Below are positions 888 to 8,960 of a stretch of DNA of 64,000 nt, in pieces. The DNA is from Seongchinamella unica. Its GTDB lineage: Bacteria; Pseudomonadota; Gammaproteobacteria; Pseudomonadales; Halieaceae. Under the pieces are notes generated by a model that saw only the letters and a program-made list of their open reading frames with translations, did not search any database and was not told the origin of the DNA. The translations under genes and the position numbers were made by a program. Positions within the stretch are counted from its first letter, which is position 1. Every line of letters begins with the position of its first letter. The stretch is from the NCBI RefSeq assembly GCF_004354085.1, contig NZ_SMSE01000004.1, forward strand, positions 372,001 through 436,000, given 5' to 3'.

Positions 888-1673
888 ATGGACAAACACA
901 TCACCCCGGCGGCCTTGCGCAGGGCTATTCGCAGCGGAGAATTCAGCGGCAACACCTCCGGCTACTCGCCGGGCTTTGTCCAGTGCAACCTGACCATACT
1001 CCCCGCTGACTGGGCCAGTGATTTCCTGCGCTTCTGCCAGTCCAACCCCCGGCCCTGCCCGCTCATCGCCAGTTCGAACAAACCGGGTGACACTGGCTTA
1101 CCACTTTTGGGGGATATTGACATCAGAACCGATGTGCCAAGCTACAGAGTGTTCCGCGACGGTGTATTCGTCGAGGAGGTCGCTGATATCCGCAGCCACT
1201 GGCGTGATGACCTTGTGGTATTCGCCCTGGGGTGTTCCTTCTCGTTCGAAGAAGCGCTGCTGGCCGACGGCCTCGACGTGCGCAACATCAGCGAGGGAGT
1301 GAATGTCCCCATGTACCGCACCAACATTGATTGTGCGGCGGCAGGCCCTTTCCAGGGCAAGATGGTGGTCAGCATGCGGCCGTTCAAGGCTGCTGACGCA
1401 ATACGCGCTGTGCAGATCTGCACCCGCTTCCCCTCGGTGCACGGTGCGCCCGTTCACTTGGGCGATCCTGGCCTGATCGGAATCGATAATCTGGATCTAC
1501 CGGATTACGGCGATGCTGTCACCATGGGGGAAAACGAGCTGCCCGTATTCTGGGCCTGCGGGGTCACGCCGCAGGTGGCACTGGAGAAGGCCCGGCCTCC
1601 CTTTGCCATTACCCACAGTCCCGGACACATGCTGGTGACAGATTTGCGCAACAGTCAACTGGCGGTCCTGTAA
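888..1673 (+). CDS. DUF1445 hydro-lyase / D-glutamate cyclase N-half family (YcsI-like)
   Basis: This 261-residue protein matches the PF07286 (DUF1445, YcsI/putative hydro-lyase) family, which forms the N-terminal half of mitochondrial D-glutamate cyclase DGLUCY. Visible family features are [11 protein letters not shown] near residue 26, [13 protein letters not shown] near 112 and the [15 protein letters not shown] tail. Length equals that of stand-alone bacterial members. The start ATG follows an AGGAT ribosome site. It is the first gene of a seven-gene operon, 16 bp before pxpA, the same association as ycsI with pxpABC in Bacillus subtilis. The DGLUCY C-half is encoded separately four genes downstream. 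The role in D-glutamate to 5-oxoproline conversion is inferred from DGLUCY; the activity of the lone domain is not established. Confidence 0.85.
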
Positions 1674-1689
1674 AACAGGTGAGACAAGC

Positions 1690-2421
1690 ATGCTTTTGAA
1701 TTGTGATCTGGGCGAGAGCTACGGTAGCTGGGCCATGGGTCTGGACGCCGAGGTGATGCCCCATATCGACCAGGCCAATATTGCCTGCGGCTTCCACGGT
1801 GGCGACCCTTTGACCATAGGCAACACCCTGGCCATGGCAGCCGAACACGGTGTCCAGGTGGGCGCTCATCCAGCCTACCCGGACCTGGTCGGATTCGGCC
1901 GCCGCTCAATGGCACTGAGCGCGGAAGAAATCATCTCCAGCATGCACTACCAGATTGCAGCCCTGGAGGGCATGGCCCGCACGGCAGGACTGACCCTGGC
2001 CTACGTCAAGCCTCACGGCGCGCTGTACAACGACATGATGGCCAGGGAAGAGGTTCGCCACGCCATCATGCGGGCGATGGCGGCGTATCATAGCGAACTG
2101 CTGCTGATGCTGCAGGCGACACCGGAAGCCGACACCCACCGGGCCGAAGCCGCGGATTTCGGCCTTGAACTGCTGTTTGAGGCGTTTGCCGACCGCTGTT
2201 ACGACGACGATGGCAGACTCCTGTCCAGACGTAGGCCGGGTGCGGTGCACAACCGCGAGAACATGCTGGCCCAGGTCGCCCAGCTTAAGGCACAGGGCAC
2301 GGTAACCACCGTCAGTGGAAAGACGCTGGAACTGTCGGTCGACACTCTGTGCGTGCACGGCGACAACCCGGAAGGGGTTCAGGCTATCCGCGAAATTCGC
2401 GCACTGATCCAGGGGAGCTGA
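1690..2421 (+). CDS. pxpA: 5-oxoprolinase subunit A (LamB/YcsF family)
   Basis: One of three subunits of the prokaryotic ATP-dependent 5-oxoprolinase, which opens 5-oxo-L-proline to L-glutamate in the cytoplasm. The 243-residue protein begins with the hallmark LLNCDLGESYGSW, followed by HIDQANIACGFHGGDP (residues 27-42) and YVKPHGALYNDM near 110. DTLCVHGDNPEG near 220 closes the fold. Length is typical (about 245-255). The start ATG is preceded by GGTGAGA. It is in operon with the upstream DUF1445 gene and with pxpB 6 bp downstream. The family identification is secure; whether this enzyme takes the D or L isomer cannot be told from sequence. Confidence 0.96.
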   Translation: MLLNCDLGESYGSWAMGLDAEVMPHIDQANIACGFHGGDPLTIGNTLAMAAEHGVQVGAHPAYPDLVGFGRRSMALSAEEIISSMHYQIAALEGMARTAGLTLAYVKPHGALYNDMMAREEVRHAIMRAMAAYHSELLLMLQATPEADTHRAEAADFGLELLFEAFADRCYDDDGRLLSRRRPGAVHNRENMLAQVAQLKAQGTVTTVSGKTLELSVDTLCVHGDNPEGVQAIREIRALIQGS

Positions 2422-2427
2422 GCAATC

Positions 2428-3105
2428 GTGGAACTGCACTTCGCCGGCGAGAACGCCATGATGCTGTACCTTGGCGAGACAACATCCCCGGAAATAGCTG
2501 CCCGCGTACAGTCTGCGGGCCTGGCGGTGGAGGCCTGCCTCGGAGACGATCTACTCGACCTGGTGCCCTCCTACGCTTCGCTGCTGATTATTTACAACCC
2601 GATGACGACTGACCATCTTTCCGTGGCTCACCGGATTCGCCAGAGCCTGGACCAGATTGACGGGACCATGGCCGATGACGGCAATGAGGTGGTGCTACCG
2701 GTGTATTATCACCCGGAGGCCGGCGAGGACCTGGAAGCGCTGGCAGACAGGGCGTCGATGAGTGTCGACGAGGTCATTTCTCTGCATAGCGGCGGCGAAT
2801 ATCGCGTCTATGCTATCGGCTTTGCTCCCGGTTTTGCCTATCTCGGGCAGGTGGACGAACAAATTGCTGCACCTCGTCTCGCCACACCACGGCAGAAGGT
2901 ACCCCGCGGCGCCGTGGCCATCGCCGATCGCCAGACCGCCGTTTATCCGGCGGAATCGCCGGGCGGCTGGAACCTGATCGGGCGTTGCCCGGTGCGTATG
3001 TTTGACCCGCAAGCCACGCCCACCATGCCGGTGAGTGTGGGCGATCGGGTGCGCTTTGAGCCCATTGACCGCAGCCGTTTCCTGGCACTGGGCGGTGAAC
3101 TGTGA
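2428..3105 (+). CDS. pxpB: 5-oxoprolinase subunit B (KipI-like, AHS1)
   Basis: Partner of PxpC in the ATP-dependent 5-oxoprolinase complex; in Bacillus the homologue KipI also inhibits kinase KinA. The 225-residue protein carries family motifs IGFAPGFAYLG near residue 131, APRLATPRQKVPRGAVAIA near 149 and the GGWNLIGRCPVRMFDP block near 180. It begins with GTG at 2428, six bases after the pxpA stop; no ATG lies near the family's expected N-terminus. Its last four bases overlap the start of pxpC, which suggests coupled translation. Length matches the family (about 220-240). Confidence 0.95.
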   Translation: MELHFAGENAMMLYLGETTSPEIAARVQSAGLAVEACLGDDLLDLVPSYASLLIIYNPMTTDHLSVAHRIRQSLDQIDGTMADDGNEVVLPVYYHPEAGEDLEALADRASMSVDEVISLHSGGEYRVYAIGFAPGFAYLGQVDEQIAAPRLATPRQKVPRGAVAIADRQTAVYPAESPGGWNLIGRCPVRMFDPQATPTMPVSVGDRVRFEPIDRSRFLALGGEL

Positions 3106-4040
3106 GCCTCAAGGTCATACAGCCCGGTATTCTCAGCCTGCTGCAGGACAGTGGCCGCATGGGACAGCATCGCATTGGCCTCACCAATGGCGGCCCCCTG
3201 GATCCGGAGGCGTTCAACTACTGCAATCGACTGCTGCAGAACGCGCCAGGCAGTACCGCGGTGGAGATCAGTTTCGGTGGCCTGCTGCTGGAAGCCACTG
3301 TCGACACTTTTATCTGCCTGACCGGGGCCGTAATGCCTCTGCGCATCAACAACAAGGTGCAACCCCAGTGGGAAGTGCTGCCGGTCAGCGCGGGCGACCG
3401 GATTTCGGTGGACTTCGCGGAACAAGGCTGTCGCGCCTACCTCGGGGTGGCGGACGGCTTCGACATAGCGCCCTCCTTCGGCAGCACTGCCACGGTGGTC
3501 AGGGAAAAGATCGGCGGCCTGGCCGGTGACAAACTGCACGTAAATGACGAGTTGTCATGCGCCAGGGTAGCTTCACGCAAGCGACTCTATCTGCGTGAGG
3601 ATCATCGACCCCGCTACCAGAATGAAGTCACAGTTAGAGTTATTCCCGGTTACCAGCAAAAGCACTTCAGCCGTTACCAGCAGCGGCGCTTTTTCAGCCA
3701 CGCCTACACCGTGTCCGATCGCTGTGACCGCATGGGTTACCGGTTGGAAGGTCCTGCCATCGAATGCGACATCGAAGGCATTCTGTCCGAGGGAATCTGC
3801 TTTGGCGCCATCCAGGTGCCCGCCGATGGCCAGCCCATCGTCTTGCTGAATGACCGGCAGACCATTGGCGGCTATCCCAAAATTGGTTCTGCCCTCTCGC
3901 TGGACTGCGCACACCTGGCGCAGTTACGTCCCGGCGGCAAGGTGCACTTTGCGCCAATCAGCCCCCACGGCGCCCACAACGCACTGCACCTGGCAGACAG
4001 TTTTGTGCGGCGACGGCCACTCATGGAGCGAACCAATTGA
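3102..4040 (+). CDS. pxpC: 5-oxoprolinase subunit C (AHS2, biotin-dependent carboxyltransferase-like)
   Basis: Third 5-oxoprolinase subunit. The 312-residue protein starts LKVIQPGILSLLQDSGRMG, a diagnostic PxpC/AHS2 opening, continues with GLTNGGPLDPEAFNYCNRLL near residue 26 and VEISFGGLLLE near 54, and ends with the ILLNDRQTIGGYPKIG-type block near 248. The start is GTG at 3102 inside the pxpB stop region (GTGA overlap). The stop overlaps the next gene by four bases (TTGA). The domain resembles one half of urea amidolyase, which often misleads automatic naming; the pxpA-pxpB context fixes it as oxoprolinase. Confidence 0.95.
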   Translation: MSLKVIQPGILSLLQDSGRMGQHRIGLTNGGPLDPEAFNYCNRLLQNAPGSTAVEISFGGLLLEATVDTFICLTGAVMPLRINNKVQPQWEVLPVSAGDRISVDFAEQGCRAYLGVADGFDIAPSFGSTATVVREKIGGLAGDKLHVNDELSCARVASRKRLYLREDHRPRYQNEVTVRVIPGYQQKHFSRYQQRRFFSHAYTVSDRCDRMGYRLEGPAIECDIEGILSEGICFGAIQVPADGQPIVLLNDRQTIGGYPKIGSALSLDCAHLAQLRPGGKVHFAPISPHGAHNALHLADSFVRRRPLMERTN

Positions 4041-4891
4041 ACGAGATGGCACTCAGTGCTGCAATTGAAGCTGCCCTTGTCGCCCGCAACCTGCGAAACA
4101 TGCAGGTTGCCCGGGACGCGCTGGCACCTGGCTACTACCTGCGCGCGGCGCAAATGCTCCGGGACATCAGGGGGCCGGTCATCATCGGTACCGGCTTTCC
4201 CGTCAACGGCACCTTTGAAACCGATGGCCCGGTGGGAGCAATCGCCCTCTATGACGCACTGGAAAAACTCGGTGCAGAACCCTGGCTGGCCTGTGGTCCC
4301 CCACTGTCCCAATGCCTGCTGGACGATTATCGCCTGATTGAACTGCGCGCCCGCTCCATGGAGGCTGCCGCTGTGGAGGCAACGAACAGGCTGGAACAGT
4401 TACAGCCCTCGGCGGTGATTTCGATCGAGCGGCCGGGACTTAGCGCCGATGGCTGCTACTACAATATGCGCGGCGAGGATATCAGCTCCCGCAGCGCCAT
4501 TTTTGACCCTTACATCACAGCCGCCGAGTGCCCCACCATCGCTATTGGGGACGGTGGTAACGAAATTGGCATGGGCAATATTCGCGCGGCGATAGCGAGC
4601 CTGGATATCAATGTCGCTGAGACCGGCTGCGACGAATTACTGGTAGCCGACGTTTCCAATTGGGGCGCCTACGGCCTCATCGCTCTTCTCGGCTTGTGGC
4701 GACAGCGCGACCTGCTGGCGGAAGTTTTTCCGCTGGAGATTCTCCACTATCTTTCCGCACACGGTAGCGTGGATGGCGTCACCCGCGAAAACACCCTGAC
4801 CGAAGACGGCCTGGACGCCGCCGAAGGTCAGCAGGTCATCGATGAGCTGCGGATACTCACCGGGTTTCTGCAATCTGGGATCAATCAGTGA
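4037..4891 (+). CDS. DUF4392 protein, D-glutamate cyclase C-half
   Basis: This 284-residue protein corresponds to PF14336 (DUF4392), the C-terminal domain of eukaryotic D-glutamate cyclase DGLUCY, which turns D-glutamate into 5-oxo-D-proline. Hallmarks are IIGTGFPV near residue 49 with ETDGPVGA just after, ISIERPGLSADGCYYNMRG at about 132-150 and the glycine-rich AIGDGGNEIGMGNI at about 171-184. The start is TTG at 4037, chosen because GGAG lies eight bases before it and it overlaps the pxpC stop; an in-frame ATG sits at 4046. Having this domain free-standing, separated from its DUF1445 partner by pxpABC, is the notable point of the operon. Catalysis by the separate half is inference. Confidence 0.85.
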   Translation: MNEMALSAAIEAALVARNLRNMQVARDALAPGYYLRAAQMLRDIRGPVIIGTGFPVNGTFETDGPVGAIALYDALEKLGAEPWLACGPPLSQCLLDDYRLIELRARSMEAAAVEATNRLEQLQPSAVISIERPGLSADGCYYNMRGEDISSRSAIFDPYITAAECPTIAIGDGGNEIGMGNIRAAIASLDINVAETGCDELLVADVSNWGAYGLIALLGLWRQRDLLAEVFPLEILHYLSAHGSVDGVTRENTLTEDGLDAAEGQQVIDELRILTGFLQSGINQ

Positions 4892-4928
4892 CTGCCCGTC
4901 GGAGAGGGCCAACTCAAAGGTAACCAAG

Positions 4929-5786
4929 ATGAGCATTGTGTATTTGAACGGCGACTACATGCCGATGGCGGAGGCGCGGATTTCCCCCATGGACCGGGGT
5001 TTCCTGTTCGGCGACGGGATCTATGAAGTGGTCCCGTCCTACGACGGGAAACTGGTGGGGTTTACACCCCACCTGGAGCGCATGCAGGACGGCCTGGACG
5101 CCATCGAGATCGATCTCAAGGTGGAGCATACGGCCTGGCGCAACATCGCCGAGCAATTGATCGAGCGCAACGGTGGCGGCAACCTGGGCATTTACTTCCA
5201 TGTCAGCCGTGGGGCGGACAGCAAGCGGCATCACGCCTATCCATTAAATATCACGCCGACGCTCTACGCCTTTGCCTTCGAGATCCCGCCGGCTCCCAGA
5301 CCTGATAAAAGTGCGGCTACACCCTACACCGTATCGACGGCGGAAGACCTGCGTTGGCGGCGTTGCAACATCAAGTCGACGGCCCTGCTGGGCAATGTCA
5401 TGCACTACCAGCACGGCCACTCCCGGGGACATTCCGAGACCATTCTGTACAACCAGGAGGGGGAGATTACCGAAGCTGCCGCCTGTAACGTCTTCGTGAT
5501 CAAGAACGGCATTGTTGCCACCCCCCTGCTGGACCACCAGAAGCTGCCCGGCATCACCCGGCTGATGCTGCTGGAAATCCTGCGCAGGGATGGCAGCATC
5601 CCGGTCCAGGAGCGGGTCGTAAAACTGGCTGAGTTGAACGACGCCGATGAGGTATGGATTACCTCCTCCTCCAAGGAGATTGCGCCGGTAATAGAAATCG
5701 ACGGCAAGCCGGTGGGCGACGGCGGGATTGGCGATATCTGGCTGGCGGCCCAGACCCTCTACACAGAGCACAAGTTCGATTTCTGA
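4929..5786 (+). CDS. Class IV PLP aminotransferase, probable D-amino-acid (D-alanine) transaminase
   Basis: Likely interconverts D-alanine plus 2-oxoglutarate with pyruvate plus D-glutamate. The 285-residue protein has class IV features: YLNGDYMPMAEARISPMDRG at the N-terminus, FLFGDGIYEVVPSYDGK at about 23-39, the PLP-lysine region RCNIKSTALLGNV near 145, and the signature EGEITEAAACNVF near 182. The reading frame extends 29 codons further upstream, but the ATG at 4929 aligns with family starts and follows an AAGG ribosome site. Branched-chain aminotransferases share the fold; the IKS-type lysine motif and the D-glutamate neighbours favour the D-amino-acid type. The stop overlaps the alr start. 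Confidence 0.88.
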   Translation: MSIVYLNGDYMPMAEARISPMDRGFLFGDGIYEVVPSYDGKLVGFTPHLERMQDGLDAIEIDLKVEHTAWRNIAEQLIERNGGGNLGIYFHVSRGADSKRHHAYPLNITPTLYAFAFEIPPAPRPDKSAATPYTVSTAEDLRWRRCNIKSTALLGNVMHYQHGHSRGHSETILYNQEGEITEAAACNVFVIKNGIVATPLLDHQKLPGITRLMLLEILRRDGSIPVQERVVKLAELNDADEVWITSSSKEIAPVIEIDGKPVGDGGIGDIWLAAQTLYTEHKFDF

Positions 5787-6868
5787 TGGCGCGCGCAAAC
5801 CAGGCCCGGCTGAATCTCCAGTCACTTCGTGACAACCTGGCCCTGGCCAGGAGACTGGCCCCCGCGTCCAGGGTGATGTCAGTAGTGAAGGCCAACGGCT
5901 ATGGGCACGGTGCGGTCACCGTAGCGCGCGCGCTGGCGCCGCTGTCAGACGCGCTGGCTGTAGCGTGCATCGAGGAGGCAATGGAACTGCGAGCCGCGGG
6001 GCTGGAAACCCCCGTGCTGCTGCTGGAAGGTGTTTTCGAAGCCAGCGAACTGGCAATCGCAGCCCGGGAAAACTTCTGGGTGACGATAGATAATCGACAG
6101 CATCTCGGTTGGCTGGAAGAGGCACGCCTGCCGGCACCGCTGCGCTGCTGGTTGAAGGTAGACACCGGGATGCACAGGCTTGGTGTGCCCGCCGCGGAAA
6201 CCGCCGACTACCATCAGCGGCTGGCCGTTAGCAATAACTGCCAGGGCGACATCGTCACCTGCACCCACTTTGCCAGTGCCGACGACCTGGGCAGCAACCA
6301 GACCAACGAACAGCTGGCCCTGTTCGAACGGGCGACGGCCGGTCTCAGCGGACTGCGCAGCGCCGCCAACTCCCCCGGAGTACTGGGCTGGCCGGCCTCG
6401 CATTATGACTGGATTCGACCCGGCTATATGCTCTATGGCAACACGCCCTTCCAGGAACCGCACCCGAATACGAACGCGCTGAAACCGGTAATGACGCTTT
6501 GCAGCTCAGTCATATCCCTGCGGGAGGTGGCCGTCGGCGAGACAGTGGGCTATGGCGCAAGCTGGAGTGCGCAGCGGCAGTCCAGAATCGCCACCGTGAG
6601 CATCGGTTACGGCGACGGCTATCCTCGCATGGCCGCCAACGGCACGCCAGTGCTGGTCAATGGTCACCGCGCACCGCTGGCCGGACGCGTCTCCATGGAC
6701 ATGATTACCGTGGATGTCACTGACCTGCCCGAAGTCAACATCGGCGACGAGGTCGTGCTCTGGGGTGAAGACCTCCCCGTCGGCGAGGTTGCGGCACACG
6801 CCAATACCATCGGTTACGAGCTGACCACCCGCATGCCGTCCCGCACTCCTAGGGTCGTAATCGACTGA
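5786..6868 (+). CDS. alr: Alanine racemase
   Basis: PLP enzyme interconverting L- and D-alanine. The 360-residue protein has the PLP-lysine motif VVKANGYGHG (Lys35), a family-typical LKVDTGMHRLG near 128, and the second catalytic region with GYGASW near 253; SIGYGDGYPR and GRVSMDMITVD follow. The start is taken as the ATG at 5786, which shares its A with the stop of the aminotransferase (TGATG) and matches family N-termini; the frame is open for 44 codons before it. The cluster with D-amino-acid genes suggests a catabolic alanine racemase (DadX role) rather than the biosynthetic copy, but sequence alone does not separate them. Confidence 0.95.
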   Translation: MARANQARLNLQSLRDNLALARRLAPASRVMSVVKANGYGHGAVTVARALAPLSDALAVACIEEAMELRAAGLETPVLLLEGVFEASELAIAARENFWVTIDNRQHLGWLEEARLPAPLRCWLKVDTGMHRLGVPAAETADYHQRLAVSNNCQGDIVTCTHFASADDLGSNQTNEQLALFERATAGLSGLRSAANSPGVLGWPASHYDWIRPGYMLYGNTPFQEPHPNTNALKPVMTLCSSVISLREVAVGETVGYGASWSAQRQSRIATVSIGYGDGYPRMAANGTPVLVNGHRAPLAGRVSMDMITVDVTDLPEVNIGDEVVLWGEDLPVGEVAAHANTIGYELTTRMPSRTPRVVID

Positions 6869-6911: not shown

Positions 6912-8960
6912 ATGATAAAAACAAAGCCTGTTCTCAAAGCACTGCTTTACCTGTTCCTGCTGTTGCTGATCTGTTGCCTGATCACCCTGTTCTGGCTACG
7001 CCAGGAATTTTCTCGTATTCGAACCGAAGGCGCAGCTGCCGATTACTGGCAGTCGGTGCCGGTCGCCAGGGCAGACCCGGCGCTGCCTCACCCCCGGGAG
7101 TGTGATCAGCATTATCCCGAAAAGCGCGCATTTTTCGGCGCCCTGCATGTCCACACCGCAGCGTCCTATGACGCCAGCGCTTTCGGCACCACAACCACGG
7201 TGGATGATGCCTACCGCTTCGCCAGGGGCGAATCCCTGCCGCTGCGGCTGCGCGGCGACCCCCCGGGGAGTACTGCGCCGGTCATGCAACTGCCTTCCCC
7301 GCTGGATTTCATCGCTGTCACCGATCACGCGGAGGCGCTGGGAGAAGTCCGCCTGTGCTACGACCCTGGCAGTGCGGCACACGGGACCCTGGTGTGTCGT
7401 CTCTACCGGGGTGACCTGAAAGTCCCGGCCGGGGATGACATGCAAGCTGTCCTGCGCCTGGCGACCCTGGCAATTTTCGGCCAGGATCGCTCACGCCGGG
7501 TCTGTGGCGAGGATGGCAGCCGGTGCCGGAAGCAGGCCGCCCTGGCCTGGCTGGAAAATCAGCGCAGCACCGAACGCTGGCACGACCGCTCCGGTGCTTG
7601 CGACTTCACCACCCTGCATGGCTACGAATACACCCTGGCCGAGGAGTCCGCCAACCTTCACCGCAACGTGATTTTTCGCTCTGCCCGGGTGCCCCAGGCC
7701 GTGCTGAGTGCCAGGGAAGCCCCCTCGCCTGAGTCGCTCTGGCGCTGGCTGGATAGCCGCTGTATCGAAGGTGACCCGGAATGCGACGTGCTGACGATCC
7801 CCCACAACAGCAACTGGAGCAACGGGAGAATGTGGTTTCCGTACAGCAACCGGGCGCTGCCACCCGCTGAACAGGGCGCACAAGCCAAACTCCGGGCAAA
7901 GCTTGAGCCTCTGGCTGAAGTCATGCAAACCAAGGGCGATTCCGAATGCCGCAACGGTATCGCCAGCGTTATCGGCGCTACTGACGAGTTTTGTGACTTC
8001 GAGAAACTGCGCGCGACAGCGGAAGAAATCGAGGATTGCAATGAGACGGTGGGCCGCGGCGGCATGCTGCTCAGCGGCTGCACGTCGCGCTACAGTTTCG
8101 TCCGCTATGCACTGGCAGCAGGTCTCAGGGAGCGATCCAGGCTTGGCGTCAATCCCTTCTCCCTCGGGATTGTGGCCGCAACCGACACCCACAACGGACT
8201 ACCCGCTGCCCAGAGCGAAGTCCGCTACCTGGGTTCCCACGGCACCGACCGGCAGGTGCGCAGACGGCTGGAAGGCCGCACTGAAGTGCCTGGCGGTATC
8301 GGGGCCGGCTCACCGGTACGCTACAATCCCGGCGGCCTGGCGGGCGTCTATGCCAGCCAGAACAGCCGCGGGGCCCTGTTCGATGCGATGAAAAACCGGG
8401 AGACCTTCGGTACCAGCGGCCCCCGTATCGTGCCGCGGATGTTCGCCGGCTGGAACCTCGGGAAACTGGACTGTCAGTCACCCGATGTCATTCGCCAGGC
8501 CTATACCCTCGGTGTTCCAATGGGGGGAGAGCTCACCGGCCCGGGTACCGACAACGGACCGGCATTCCTGGTGAGCGCCAGTGCAGATCCCGGTGCCGGA
8601 CTGCTGCAACGGATCCAGATTATCAAAGTCTGGATTGATGCCGACGGTCACACCCATCAGGCGGTTCATAATGTCGCGGGAGATCCCGACAATGGGGCCA
8701 GCGTTGATCCCGCCACCTGTGCCGTCAGCGGCAGCGGATTCACTCAACTGTGCGCCAACTGGCGCGACCCGCAATTCGATCCGCAAACAGCGGCCGTCTA
8801 CTACAGCCGGGTACTGGAAAATCCCGCTTGCCGCTGGAGTCAATGGGACTGCATTCGCATGGCGGAAGAAGAGCGGCCCGCCAGTTGCACGGATCCCGGC
8901 TTGCCCTGGAAGATCCAGGAGCGCGCCTGGACCTCGCCCATCTGGTACTACCCCCGGTAG
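6912..8960 (+). CDS. DUF3604 protein, membrane-anchored PHP-like
   Basis: A 682-residue protein of the DUF3604 family (PF12228). Residues 8-30 form one hydrophobic segment (LKALLYLFLLLLICCLITLF), so the bulk is likely anchored on the periplasmic side. After it come YPEKRAFFGALHVHTAASYDA (about 70-90) with an HxH pair and DFIAVTDHAEAL near 133, which resemble PHP-domain metal ligands, and GIVAATDTHNGLPA near 417. Function of the family is not established; a metal-dependent hydrolase is plausible from the HxH/DH pattern. It is 43 bp after alr and may belong to the same transcript, though nothing ties it to D-amino acids. Length is typical of DUF3604 proteins. Confidence 0.85.
   Translation: MIKTKPVLKALLYLFLLLLICCLITLFWLRQEFSRIRTEGAAADYWQSVPVARADPALPHPRECDQHYPEKRAFFGALHVHTAASYDASAFGTTTTVDDAYRFARGESLPLRLRGDPPGSTAPVMQLPSPLDFIAVTDHAEALGEVRLCYDPGSAAHGTLVCRLYRGDLKVPAGDDMQAVLRLATLAIFGQDRSRRVCGEDGSRCRKQAALAWLENQRSTERWHDRSGACDFTTLHGYEYTLAEESANLHRNVIFRSARVPQAVLSAREAPSPESLWRWLDSRCIEGDPECDVLTIPHNSNWSNGRMWFPYSNRALPPAEQGAQAKLRAKLEPLAEVMQTKGDSECRNGIASVIGATDEFCDFEKLRATAEEIEDCNETVGRGGMLLSGCTSRYSFVRYALAAGLRERSRLGVNPFSLGIVAATDTHNGLPAAQSEVRYLGSHGTDRQVRRRLEGRTEVPGGIGAGSPVRYNPGGLAGVYASQNSRGALFDAMKNRETFGTSGPRIVPRMFAGWNLGKLDCQSPDVIRQAYTLGVPMGGELTGPGTDNGPAFLVSASADPGAGLLQRIQIIKVWIDADGHTHQAVHNVAGDPDNGASVDPATCAVSGSGFTQLCANWRDPQFDPQTAAVYYSRVLENPACRWSQWDCIRMAEEERPASCTDPGLPWKIQERAWTSPIWYYPR

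What the first reader, a model, noticed from the sequence alone, without database searches (positions are those of the whole stretch)
888..6868. Seven-gene D-amino-acid operon with split D-glutamate cyclase around 5-oxoprolinase
DUF1445 and DUF4392, fused in eukaryotic DGLUCY, occur here as two genes on either side of pxpABC, followed by a D-amino-acid aminotransferase and alr. All gaps are 37 bp or less, with several overlaps. The order suggests L/D-Ala to D-Ala, D-Ala to D-Glu, D-Glu to 5-oxoproline, then hydrolysis to L-Glu. A stereochemical gap stands out: the known cyclase product is 5-oxo-D-proline, while PxpABC is known for the L isomer. Either this oxoprolinase accepts D, or the two DUF proteins do something else, such as racemise or make the L isomer.
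Basis: partly seen in the sequence, partly recalled or inferred. Interest (0 to 1): 0.85.

Follow-up and report, generated by a model that had tools for sequence, protein, structure and literature searches.

The report
Operon making and unmaking D-glutamate
Seven neighbouring genes in a marine bacterium look as if they both make the mirror-image amino acid D-glutamate for the cell wall and turn any surplus back into ordinary glutamate, a job that many bacteria give to a single enzyme which this one appears to lack.

Summary
The operon is real and as described: DUF1445, pxpA, pxpB, pxpC, DUF4392, a D-aminotransferase-like gene (dat) and alr, 888-6868, one strand, gaps of 37 bp or less. It recurs well beyond this genome. 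In a sample of 292 genomes of the order, DUF4392 occurs with DUF1445 in 44 of 45 and beside dat in 43 of 45. DUF1445 without DUF4392 (38 genomes) sits near pxpA in 31 and near dat in none. So DUF4392 tracks D-glutamate and DUF1445 tracks 5-oxoproline: they look like two steps, not two halves of one cyclase. Glutamate racemase (murI) is missing in 33 of 45 DUF4392 genomes, this one included, against 41 of 247 others; all 33 carry the operon dat. Best reading: Alr and Dat make wall D-Ala and D-Glu in place of MurI; DUF4392 (invariant Mn site) closes surplus D-Glu to 5-oxo-D-proline; DUF1445 (two invariant cysteines) may invert it; PxpABC returns L-Glu. No activity was tested. Twelve DUF4392 genomes keep murI, and the mammalian fused enzyme is reported to give 5-oxo-D-proline, which speaks against a racemase domain there.

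The parts
888..1673 (+). DUF1445 (PF07286, 'D-Glu_cyclase'; NCBIfam 'putative hydro-lyase'), 261 aa; proposed 5-oxoproline isomer-inverting enzyme
   Evidence: Pfam 217.9 bits, NCBIfam NF003969 402.6 vs cut-off 324; Cys116, Cys224, His243, Asp78 in 159 of 159 aligned sequences, Cys57 in 158; PDB relatives 2pif, 3db9
1690..2421 (+). pxpA, 5-oxoprolinase subunit A
   Evidence: PF03746 300 bits; NF003816 337.4 vs cut-off 213
2428..3105 (+). pxpB, 5-oxoprolinase subunit B
   Evidence: PF02682 231.6 bits; TIGR00370 159.5 vs cut-off 145.55
3102..4040 (+). pxpC, 5-oxoprolinase subunit C
   Evidence: PF02626 275.7 bits; TIGR00724 244.9 vs cut-off 230.2; equivalog NF045499 only 214.6 vs cut-off 500
4037..4891 (+). 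DUF4392 (PF14336); TTG start at 4037 or ATG at 4046; proposed Mn-dependent D-glutamate cyclase
   Evidence: Pfam 216.1 bits; TON_0340 relatives in the PDB; six metal ligands invariant
4929..5786 (+). dat, class IV aminotransferase closest to D-amino-acid aminotransferases
   Evidence: the two best NCBIfam families are D-amino-acid transaminases but below their cut-offs (236.8 vs 320, 217.2 vs 277.45); best PDB hits are D-amino acid aminotransferases, first 4pbc and 4m0j
5786..6868 (+). alr, alanine racemase, the only TIGR00492 match in the genome
   Evidence: TIGR00492 357.2 vs cut-off 168; 1 match in G000

Best explanation
The operon is a D-glutamate supply-and-return module that stands in for glutamate racemase (MurI). 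Supply: Alr makes D-Ala from L-Ala, and Dat moves its amino group to 2-oxoglutarate to give D-Glu for the wall. Return: DUF4392, a Mn-type enzyme, closes surplus D-Glu to 5-oxo-D-proline; DUF1445 converts the 5-oxoproline to the L form, possibly by a two-cysteine proton transfer; PxpABC opens it with ATP to L-Glu. MurI does this in one reversible step; here the forward and backward arms are separate and the backward arm is driven by ATP. Shown: gene content, order, conservation, no murI match by HMM, invariant residues. From established family knowledge: the Alr and PxpABC reactions. Inferred: Dat specificity, the DUF4392 reaction, and above all the DUF1445 reaction.
For: No murI (TIGR00067) match at E<=1e-3 in the own genome; none over cut-off in the 25 family genomes (weak matches in G014, G021, G024). 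In those 25 the operon dat is the only DAT match below 1e-40 in 23; G000 has a second (56% identity) and G011 (88% complete) none. The single alr is in the operon. Order sample of 292: murI missing in 33 of 45 DUF4392+ and 41 of 247 DUF4392- genomes (Fisher 1e-13, not corrected for kinship; genus level 15 of 26 vs 16 of 92, p 1e-4); three of the 33 (G033, G387, G424) have weak matches below cut-off. DUF1445-only genomes keep murI in 38 of 38. In family f197, 4 DUF4392+ members lack murI and 3 DUF4392- members have it (the 7 members that the lists show). All 33 have dat beside DUF4392; the 2 DUF4392 genomes without dat in the stretch held (G365, G468) keep murI. G034 has dat-alr by pxpABC-like genes (36-40% identity), neither DUF gene and no murI match: dat, not the cyclase, goes with murI loss. 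Class sample of 258: DAT at E<=1e-50 in 143 of 176 murI- and 28 of 82 murI+. Reviews name MurI or D-amino acid aminotransferase as the D-Glu sources. Division of labour: the 38 DUF1445-only loci have pxpA in 31, all of pxpABC in 28, a TRAP permease in 27, dat and alr in 0; G394 and G527 have DUF1445-DUF4392-dat without pxp beside them. The six acidic metal ligands of TON_0340 are invariant in 121 DUF4392 sequences, one undetermined letter apart. A Glu cyclase working on the enantiomer that PxpABC opens would only make a futile cycle in the DUF1445-pxpABC operons; an isomer-inverting step would not (inference).
Against: Twelve of the 45 keep murI: six beside a dat+alr operon (G025, G337, G344, G479, G484, G524), four beside dat alone (G394, G401, G521, G527), so the operon does not force murI loss. 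The own genome has a second DAT, by an AraC regulator and an ELFV dehydrogenase. murI absence is common in the class anyway (81 of 258 over cut-off), and 33 of 176 murI- class genomes have no strong DAT, so either the HMM misses some or other sources exist; the HMM itself is over cut-off in 8 of 14 controls. MurL/MurD2 and a racemising DapF were not excluded: my guessed MurL accession was not in the library. Mouse DGLUCY, which holds both domains, was reported to yield 5-oxo-D-proline with both isomers as standards and no L-Glu (PMC5339696); an active racemase domain should give both. TON_0340 is described as a Mn phosphatase, archaea have DUF4392 without DUF1445, and the nearest other fold match is the nuclease RecJ2. 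The DUF1445 model matched no racemase fold, and its internal repeat is not significant (E 0.12). Dat is below the D-AAT cut-offs. By recall, not checked, D-Glu use in Pseudoalteromonas CF6-2, which carries a DUF1445-pxpA-DUF4392-dat cluster, was ascribed to DgcN/DgcA.
Confidence: 0.42

Rival explanations
1. Catabolic operon: D-Ala and other D-amino acids from wall debris or seawater are funnelled by Dat to D-Glu, and the rest turns D-Glu into L-Glu. Wall D-Glu comes from elsewhere or is incidental.
For: LysR-like genes stand between DUF4392 and dat in several Oceanospirillales-type loci (one confirmed by Pfam); dat is beside DUF4392 in 10 of the 12 murI+ DUF4392 genomes; the own genome has a second DAT; Pseudoalteromonas CF6-2, cited for D-Ala use through D-Ala aminotransferase (reference title only; whether that enzyme is this gene was not checked), carries DUF1445-pxpA-DUF4392-dat.
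Against: The single alr is in this operon and no murI was found here, so the genes cannot be purely catabolic unless the second DAT supplies D-Glu; in 23 of 25 family genomes there is no second DAT below 1e-40.
Confidence: 0.25
2. DUF1445 and DUF4392 together form one D-Glu cyclase (split DGLUCY), and PxpABC of this type accepts 5-oxo-D-proline. No racemase is involved.
For: They are fused in vertebrates; DUF4392 occurs with DUF1445 in 44 of 45 order genomes, the exception lying at a contig end; they are adjacent with no pxp beside them in G394 and G527; 88 of 90 DUF1445 copies from DUF4392-bearing loci form one clade, though the printed support of that node is 0.0.
Against: DUF1445 occurs without DUF4392 in 38 of 82 DUF1445 genomes of the order, near pxpA in 31 of them, and with pxp genes on an L. 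plantarum plasmid and in B. subtilis (ycsI in the pxpABC operon; that YcsI is DUF1445 is recalled, B. subtilis rings for PF07286), while PF14336 rings in 0 of 14 controls.
Confidence: 0.2
3. DUF4392 is a phosphatase, as claimed for TON_0340, and the operon serves another small molecule.
For: Weak Mn-dependent phosphatase activity of TON_0340, lost in E59Q and D157L; weak fold match to RecJ2.
Against: kcat/KM on AMP only 190 per M per s, physiological substrate unknown; no phosphorylated substrate fits the dat, alr and pxp neighbours (inference); the DGLUCY knock-out mouse accumulates D-Glu.
Confidence: 0.08

Closest known systems
Vertebrate D-glutamate cyclase DGLUCY (9030617O03Rik/C14orf159, EC 4.2.1.48)
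   Same: Both its domains, DUF1445 and DUF4392, are present
   Different: Two genes separated by pxpABC; linked to dat, alr and 5-oxoprolinase; in this order the two track different partners
PxpABC 5-oxoprolinase operons (B. subtilis ycs/kip operon, C. glutamicum pxpTABC, L. plantarum plasmid copy)
   Same: pxpABC; ycsI also in the B. subtilis operon and DUF1445 in the L. plantarum one
   Different: Those three have an NRAMP/APC-type transporter gene; here none in the operon, and DUF4392, dat and alr are added
Glutamate racemase MurI
   Same: Net interconversion of D- and L-Glu for wall synthesis (proposed)
   Different: Different enzymes for each direction; return arm uses ATP; no murI match in the genome
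DgcN pathway (irreversible D-Glu racemisation in marine bacteria)
   Same: Multi-step, energy-costing D-Glu to L-Glu conversion in marine bacteria (passages of PMC12363236; primary paper not held)
   Different: By recall it runs through N-acetylated intermediates (DgcN/DgcA); here the proposed intermediate is the lactam 5-oxoproline
TON_0340 (Thermococcus, PDB 4dwz, 4fc5, 5gkx, 5gl2-5gl4)
   Same: Same family and fold, same six acidic ligands
   Different: Published as a probable phosphatase; no DUF1445 in archaea according to its authors

Membership tests
D-glutamate cyclase DGLUCY | DUF1445 and DUF4392 domains both present | tested here: met
D-glutamate cyclase DGLUCY | Both domains in one chain | tested here: not met
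   Separate genes 888-1673 and 4037-4891; so a homologue pair, not a DGLUCY
D-glutamate cyclase DGLUCY | D-Glu to 5-oxo-D-proline activity | not testable with these tools
   needs an assay
DUF4392 / TON_0340 family | Six acidic metal ligands (E59, D61, E115, D157, E161, D246 of TON_0340) | tested here: met
   E59, D61, E129, D170, E174, D255 counted from codon 4043; 121 of 121, D255 in 120 plus one undetermined letter
PxpABC 5-oxoprolinase | PxpA, PxpB and PxpC all present and over curated cut-offs | tested here: inconclusive
   PxpA and PxpB over cut-off; PxpC over TIGR00724 but far below equivalog NF045499
PxpABC 5-oxoprolinase | Acts on 5-oxo-L-proline | not testable with these tools
   stereospecificity not readable from sequence
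D-amino-acid aminotransferase (TIGR01121, NF005209) | Score over the curated cut-off | tested here: not met
   217.2 vs 277.45 and 236.8 vs 320, although these are the two best families; called D-AAT-like
D-amino-acid aminotransferase | Active-site Lys and the Tyr/Arg/His carboxylate site (roles recalled) | tested here: met
   Y32, R100, H102, K149, E182 in 121 of 121 aligned sequences
Alanine racemase | TIGR00492 over cut-off | tested here: met
   357.2 vs 168
Two-cysteine, cofactor-free racemases (MurI, DapF, proline racemase; grouping recalled) | Two invariant cysteines | tested here: met
   C116 and C224 in 159 of 159 DUF1445 sequences, each at a strand end before a helix in the model
Two-cysteine, cofactor-free racemases (MurI, DapF, proline racemase; grouping recalled) | Fold of one of these families | tested here: not met
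   Foldseek matches at E<=0.001 are chains of 2pif, 3db9 and the NrpR-like 3nek only; so not a member, at most works like one
Two-cysteine, cofactor-free racemases (MurI, DapF, proline racemase; grouping recalled) | The two thiols face each other across one pocket | not testable with these tools
   model coordinates are not exposed
Glutamate racemase MurI | TIGR00067 match in the genome | tested here: not met
   no match at E<=1e-3 in G000

The most novel reading that the evidence does not exclude
DUF1445 is a 5-oxoproline racemase, an activity for which I found no paper in the held library, and the operon is a complete substitute for MurI split into a Dat supply arm and an ATP-driven lactam return arm, whose spread let many gammaproteobacterial lineages lose murI.
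Probability: 0.27. Interest if true: 0.85.

Novelty: new variant of a known kind. Interest (0 to 1): 0.66.

Why it matters
DUF1445 and DUF4392 are fused in vertebrates including humans, yet no paper that I read here says which domain does what. The genomic split suggests DUF4392 acts on D-Glu and DUF1445 on 5-oxoproline and makes that directly testable with two purified proteins. If right, it adds an enzyme activity, explains how wall D-Glu can return to L-Glu without MurI, and shows a recurrent route by which an enzyme that is essential in other bacteria can be lost.

Tried and rejected
murI absence as a peculiarity of this family: rejected as stated, because only 81 of 258 gammaproteobacterial genomes have murI over cut-off. 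The operon link rests on the order-level and within-group contrasts instead; Dat in place of MurI looks general in the class.

Perfect exclusion of murI by the operon: rejected, 12 of 45 keep murI. I first took G025 as lacking dat because its fetched stretch was short; the longer stretch shows dat and alr.

Internal duplication of DUF1445: the halves align in register around C116/C224 in one of five splits tried, with E 0.12 over 72 columns; the other splits gave only short stretches. Suggestive at most. A metal site made of Cys57/116/224 and His was considered and is not excluded.

MurL as alternative D-Glu source: accession tried from recall, not in the library; not pursued. Papers on D-Glu cyclotransferase (none) and on 5-oxoproline racemase (one unrelated paper) gave nothing usable. 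Combined terms found no paper.

How things were counted: G366 (DUF4392 E 7.6e-4, below cut-off) counted as negative; murI counted as present at E<1e-30 (218 of 292; 217 by cut-off); in the class sample likewise (82 of 258; 81 by cut-off). Genomes without a match are only partly listed, so the family of some murI-negative, DUF4392-negative genomes is unknown to me and within-family contrasts cover listed members only. 28 short DUF1445 loci were dropped before the tree; sequences with stops or low coverage were dropped from alignments. The search for related loci kept the best 80 of 298, so those loci are biased to close kin. Stretches of 12 family genomes were too short to show DUF1445 or pxpA; DUF1445 there comes.
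Full report
What is there. The seven genes lie at 888-6868 on the + strand, in the order DUF1445, pxpA, pxpB, pxpC, DUF4392, dat, alr, with gaps of 16, 6, -4, -4, 37 and -1 bp, taking TTG 4037 as the DUF4392 start; ATG 4046 is an alternative that gives a 5 bp gap. Family assignments are strong, with two reservations: PxpC is over the broad TIGR00724 cut-off but far under the PxpC equivalog, and the aminotransferase scores best against D-amino-acid transaminases but under their cut-offs. Upstream lies a divergent tesB-like thioesterase, downstream a DUF3604 gene and a Ppx/GppA gene.

Host. The closest DUF4392 relatives in named genomes are Seongchinamella sediminis (82%), HTCC2148 (77%) and Pseudohalioglobus sediminis (76%), so the window is from a Halieaceae-like gammaproteobacterium; the genome is 4.19 Mb in 10 contigs, 99.99% complete.

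Conservation. Of the 80 best loci in other genomes, 77 hold dat, 76 pxpABC, 74 DUF1445, 47 alr and 43 all seven genes. The three without dat are L085 and two cut by contig ends (L088, L090); of the six without DUF1445, five are cut by contig ends and L051 is a true local absence. LysR-like genes stand between DUF4392 and dat in several Oceanospirillales-type loci (L062 confirmed by Pfam). Variants: Pseudoalteromonas chromids have DUF1445-pxpA-DUF4392-dat without neighbouring pxpBC; so has G320, plus alr, while G027 has pxpA-DUF4392-dat-alr with DUF1445 on another contig; G394 and G527 have DUF1445-DUF4392-dat only. In a class-level sample the family is rare: DUF4392 in 2 of 258 genomes, the own one included.

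Division of labour. In 292 genomes of the order (at least 95% complete), DUF4392 is over cut-off in 45, DUF1445 in 82, both in 44; the exception, G495, starts at a contig end. dat lies by DUF4392 in 43 of 45 and alr in 36 of 45 (G509 is cut by a contig end). The 38 DUF1445-only genomes were all looked at: pxpA near in 31, all of pxpABC in 28, a TRAP permease in 27, dat 0, alr 0 (stretches of 6.6 to 16 kb). Thus DUF1445 goes with 5-oxoproline hydrolysis whether or not D-Glu genes are there, and DUF4392 goes with the enzyme that makes D-Glu. Rhizobial plasmids hold divergent DUF4392 genes (about 29-34% identity) in other company, such as amino-acid ABC transporters and a PALP-family dehydratase, so the family as a whole is wider.

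murI. No match in the own genome and none over cut-off in the 25 family genomes. At order level murI is missing in 33 of 45 DUF4392+ and 41 of 247 DUF4392- genomes; all 38 DUF1445-only genomes keep it. Three of the 33 have weak matches below cut-off (G033 1.6e-8, G387 2.7e-8, G424 8.5e-15). Kinship inflates the Fisher value, so contrasts within groups matter more: family f197 (4 DUF4392+ without, 3 DUF4392- with murI, among listed members), within it genus g269 (2 and 3), and genus g302 (G424 without over-cut-off murI, G535 with). Other groups are mixed (g19, g251) or keep murI throughout with the operon (g258, g298). Every murI-less DUF4392 genome has dat in the cluster; the two DUF4392 genomes lacking it keep murI. 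G034 has dat-alr beside pxpABC-like genes but neither DUF gene and no murI match. Across the class strong DAT hits fill most murI gaps, 143 of 176, leaving 33 unexplained. The simplest reading is that operon dat made murI dispensable, more than once. Against: ten murI+ genomes also have dat by DUF4392.

Mechanism. DUF4392: the AlphaFold model (pLDDT 91.6) matches TON_0340 structures, and all six acidic ligands are invariant. The TON_0340 authors saw weak Mn phosphatase activity and held the physiological substrate to be an unidentified small molecule. DUF1445: model pLDDT 89.1, nearest folds 2pif and 3db9, then only the NrpR-like 3nek at E<=0.001. C116 and C224 are in 159 of 159 sequences from both genomic settings. 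Each ends a strand before a helix. Two invariant cysteines recall proline racemase and MurI chemistry (recalled), and 5-oxoproline resembles proline; this is a resemblance, and the fold test for those families was negative. The mammalian product being 5-oxo-D-proline speaks against racemisation in that protein.

Why an ATP-using return arm. Without MurI, D-Glu made by Dat has no direct way back. Net, the chain L-Ala + 2-oxoglutarate + ATP gives pyruvate + L-Glu, an irreversible drain that keeps D-Glu low (inference). A known analogue in marine bacteria is the DgcN route, described as an irreversible and energetically costly racemisation.

Prior art. The split human-DGLUCY homologues appear in a table of PMC11580864 (0 full-length, 6 split); the TON_0340 paper already guessed sequentially linked functions for the two domains. 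B. subtilis ycsI lies in the pxpABC operon. In the held library I found no account of a DUF1445-pxp-DUF4392-dat-alr operon or of a 5-oxoproline racemase (searches, of which I saw listings and the passages named below). Niehaus 2017 and Yu 2022 and 2023 are not held, so this is not proof.

Papers seen: PMC5339696 parts 1-2 of 4 and passages; PMC5132392 passages and section 14; PMC8788868 part 1 of 3; PMC5808125, PMC6131576, PMC10448178, PMC11580864, PMC12363236 and PMC13274462 passages; others in search listings only.

Noticed in passing
G000:C5:438157-439005 (about 2.2 kb past the window end; L139): A second D-AAT-like gene (56% identity) between an AraC-type regulator and a Glu/Leu/Phe/Val dehydrogenase; none of the other 24 family genomes searched shows a second DAT below 1e-40.
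   Followed up: partly
L150, L227 (Pseudoalteromonas chromids), L144, L160: pxpA retained beside DUF4392 and dat without neighbouring pxpBC, although PxpA is a subunit of a three-part enzyme.
   Followed up: no
G002:C1:3387585-3388438 (L018): The operon dat is matched in two overlapping pieces, one with an internal stop, in a 99% complete genome that also has no murI match; a sequencing error or a real lesion.
   Followed up: no
L188, L198, L200, L202 and others: DUF1445 with LysR, TRAP transporter, DUF2848 and an amidase: a second recurrent DUF1445 setting (DUF2848 in 11 of 38 loci; gene names), substrate unknown.
   Followed up: partly
model mb7f1d9e4fc88 of window 888-1673 vs PDB 3nek: The only non-family fold match of DUF1445 at E<=0.001 is the NrpR-like MJ0159; NrpR senses 2-oxoglutarate (recalled), which may hint at a shared ligand type.
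   Followed up: no
L151, L153 (Sinorhizobium and Bradyrhizobium plasmids): Two divergent DUF4392 genes a few kb apart with amino-acid ABC transporter and aldehyde dehydrogenase genes on conjugative plasmids.
   Followed up: no
window 6912-8960: DUF3604 gene directly downstream of alr (43 bp gap), of unknown function; present downstream in some relatives only.
   Followed up: no
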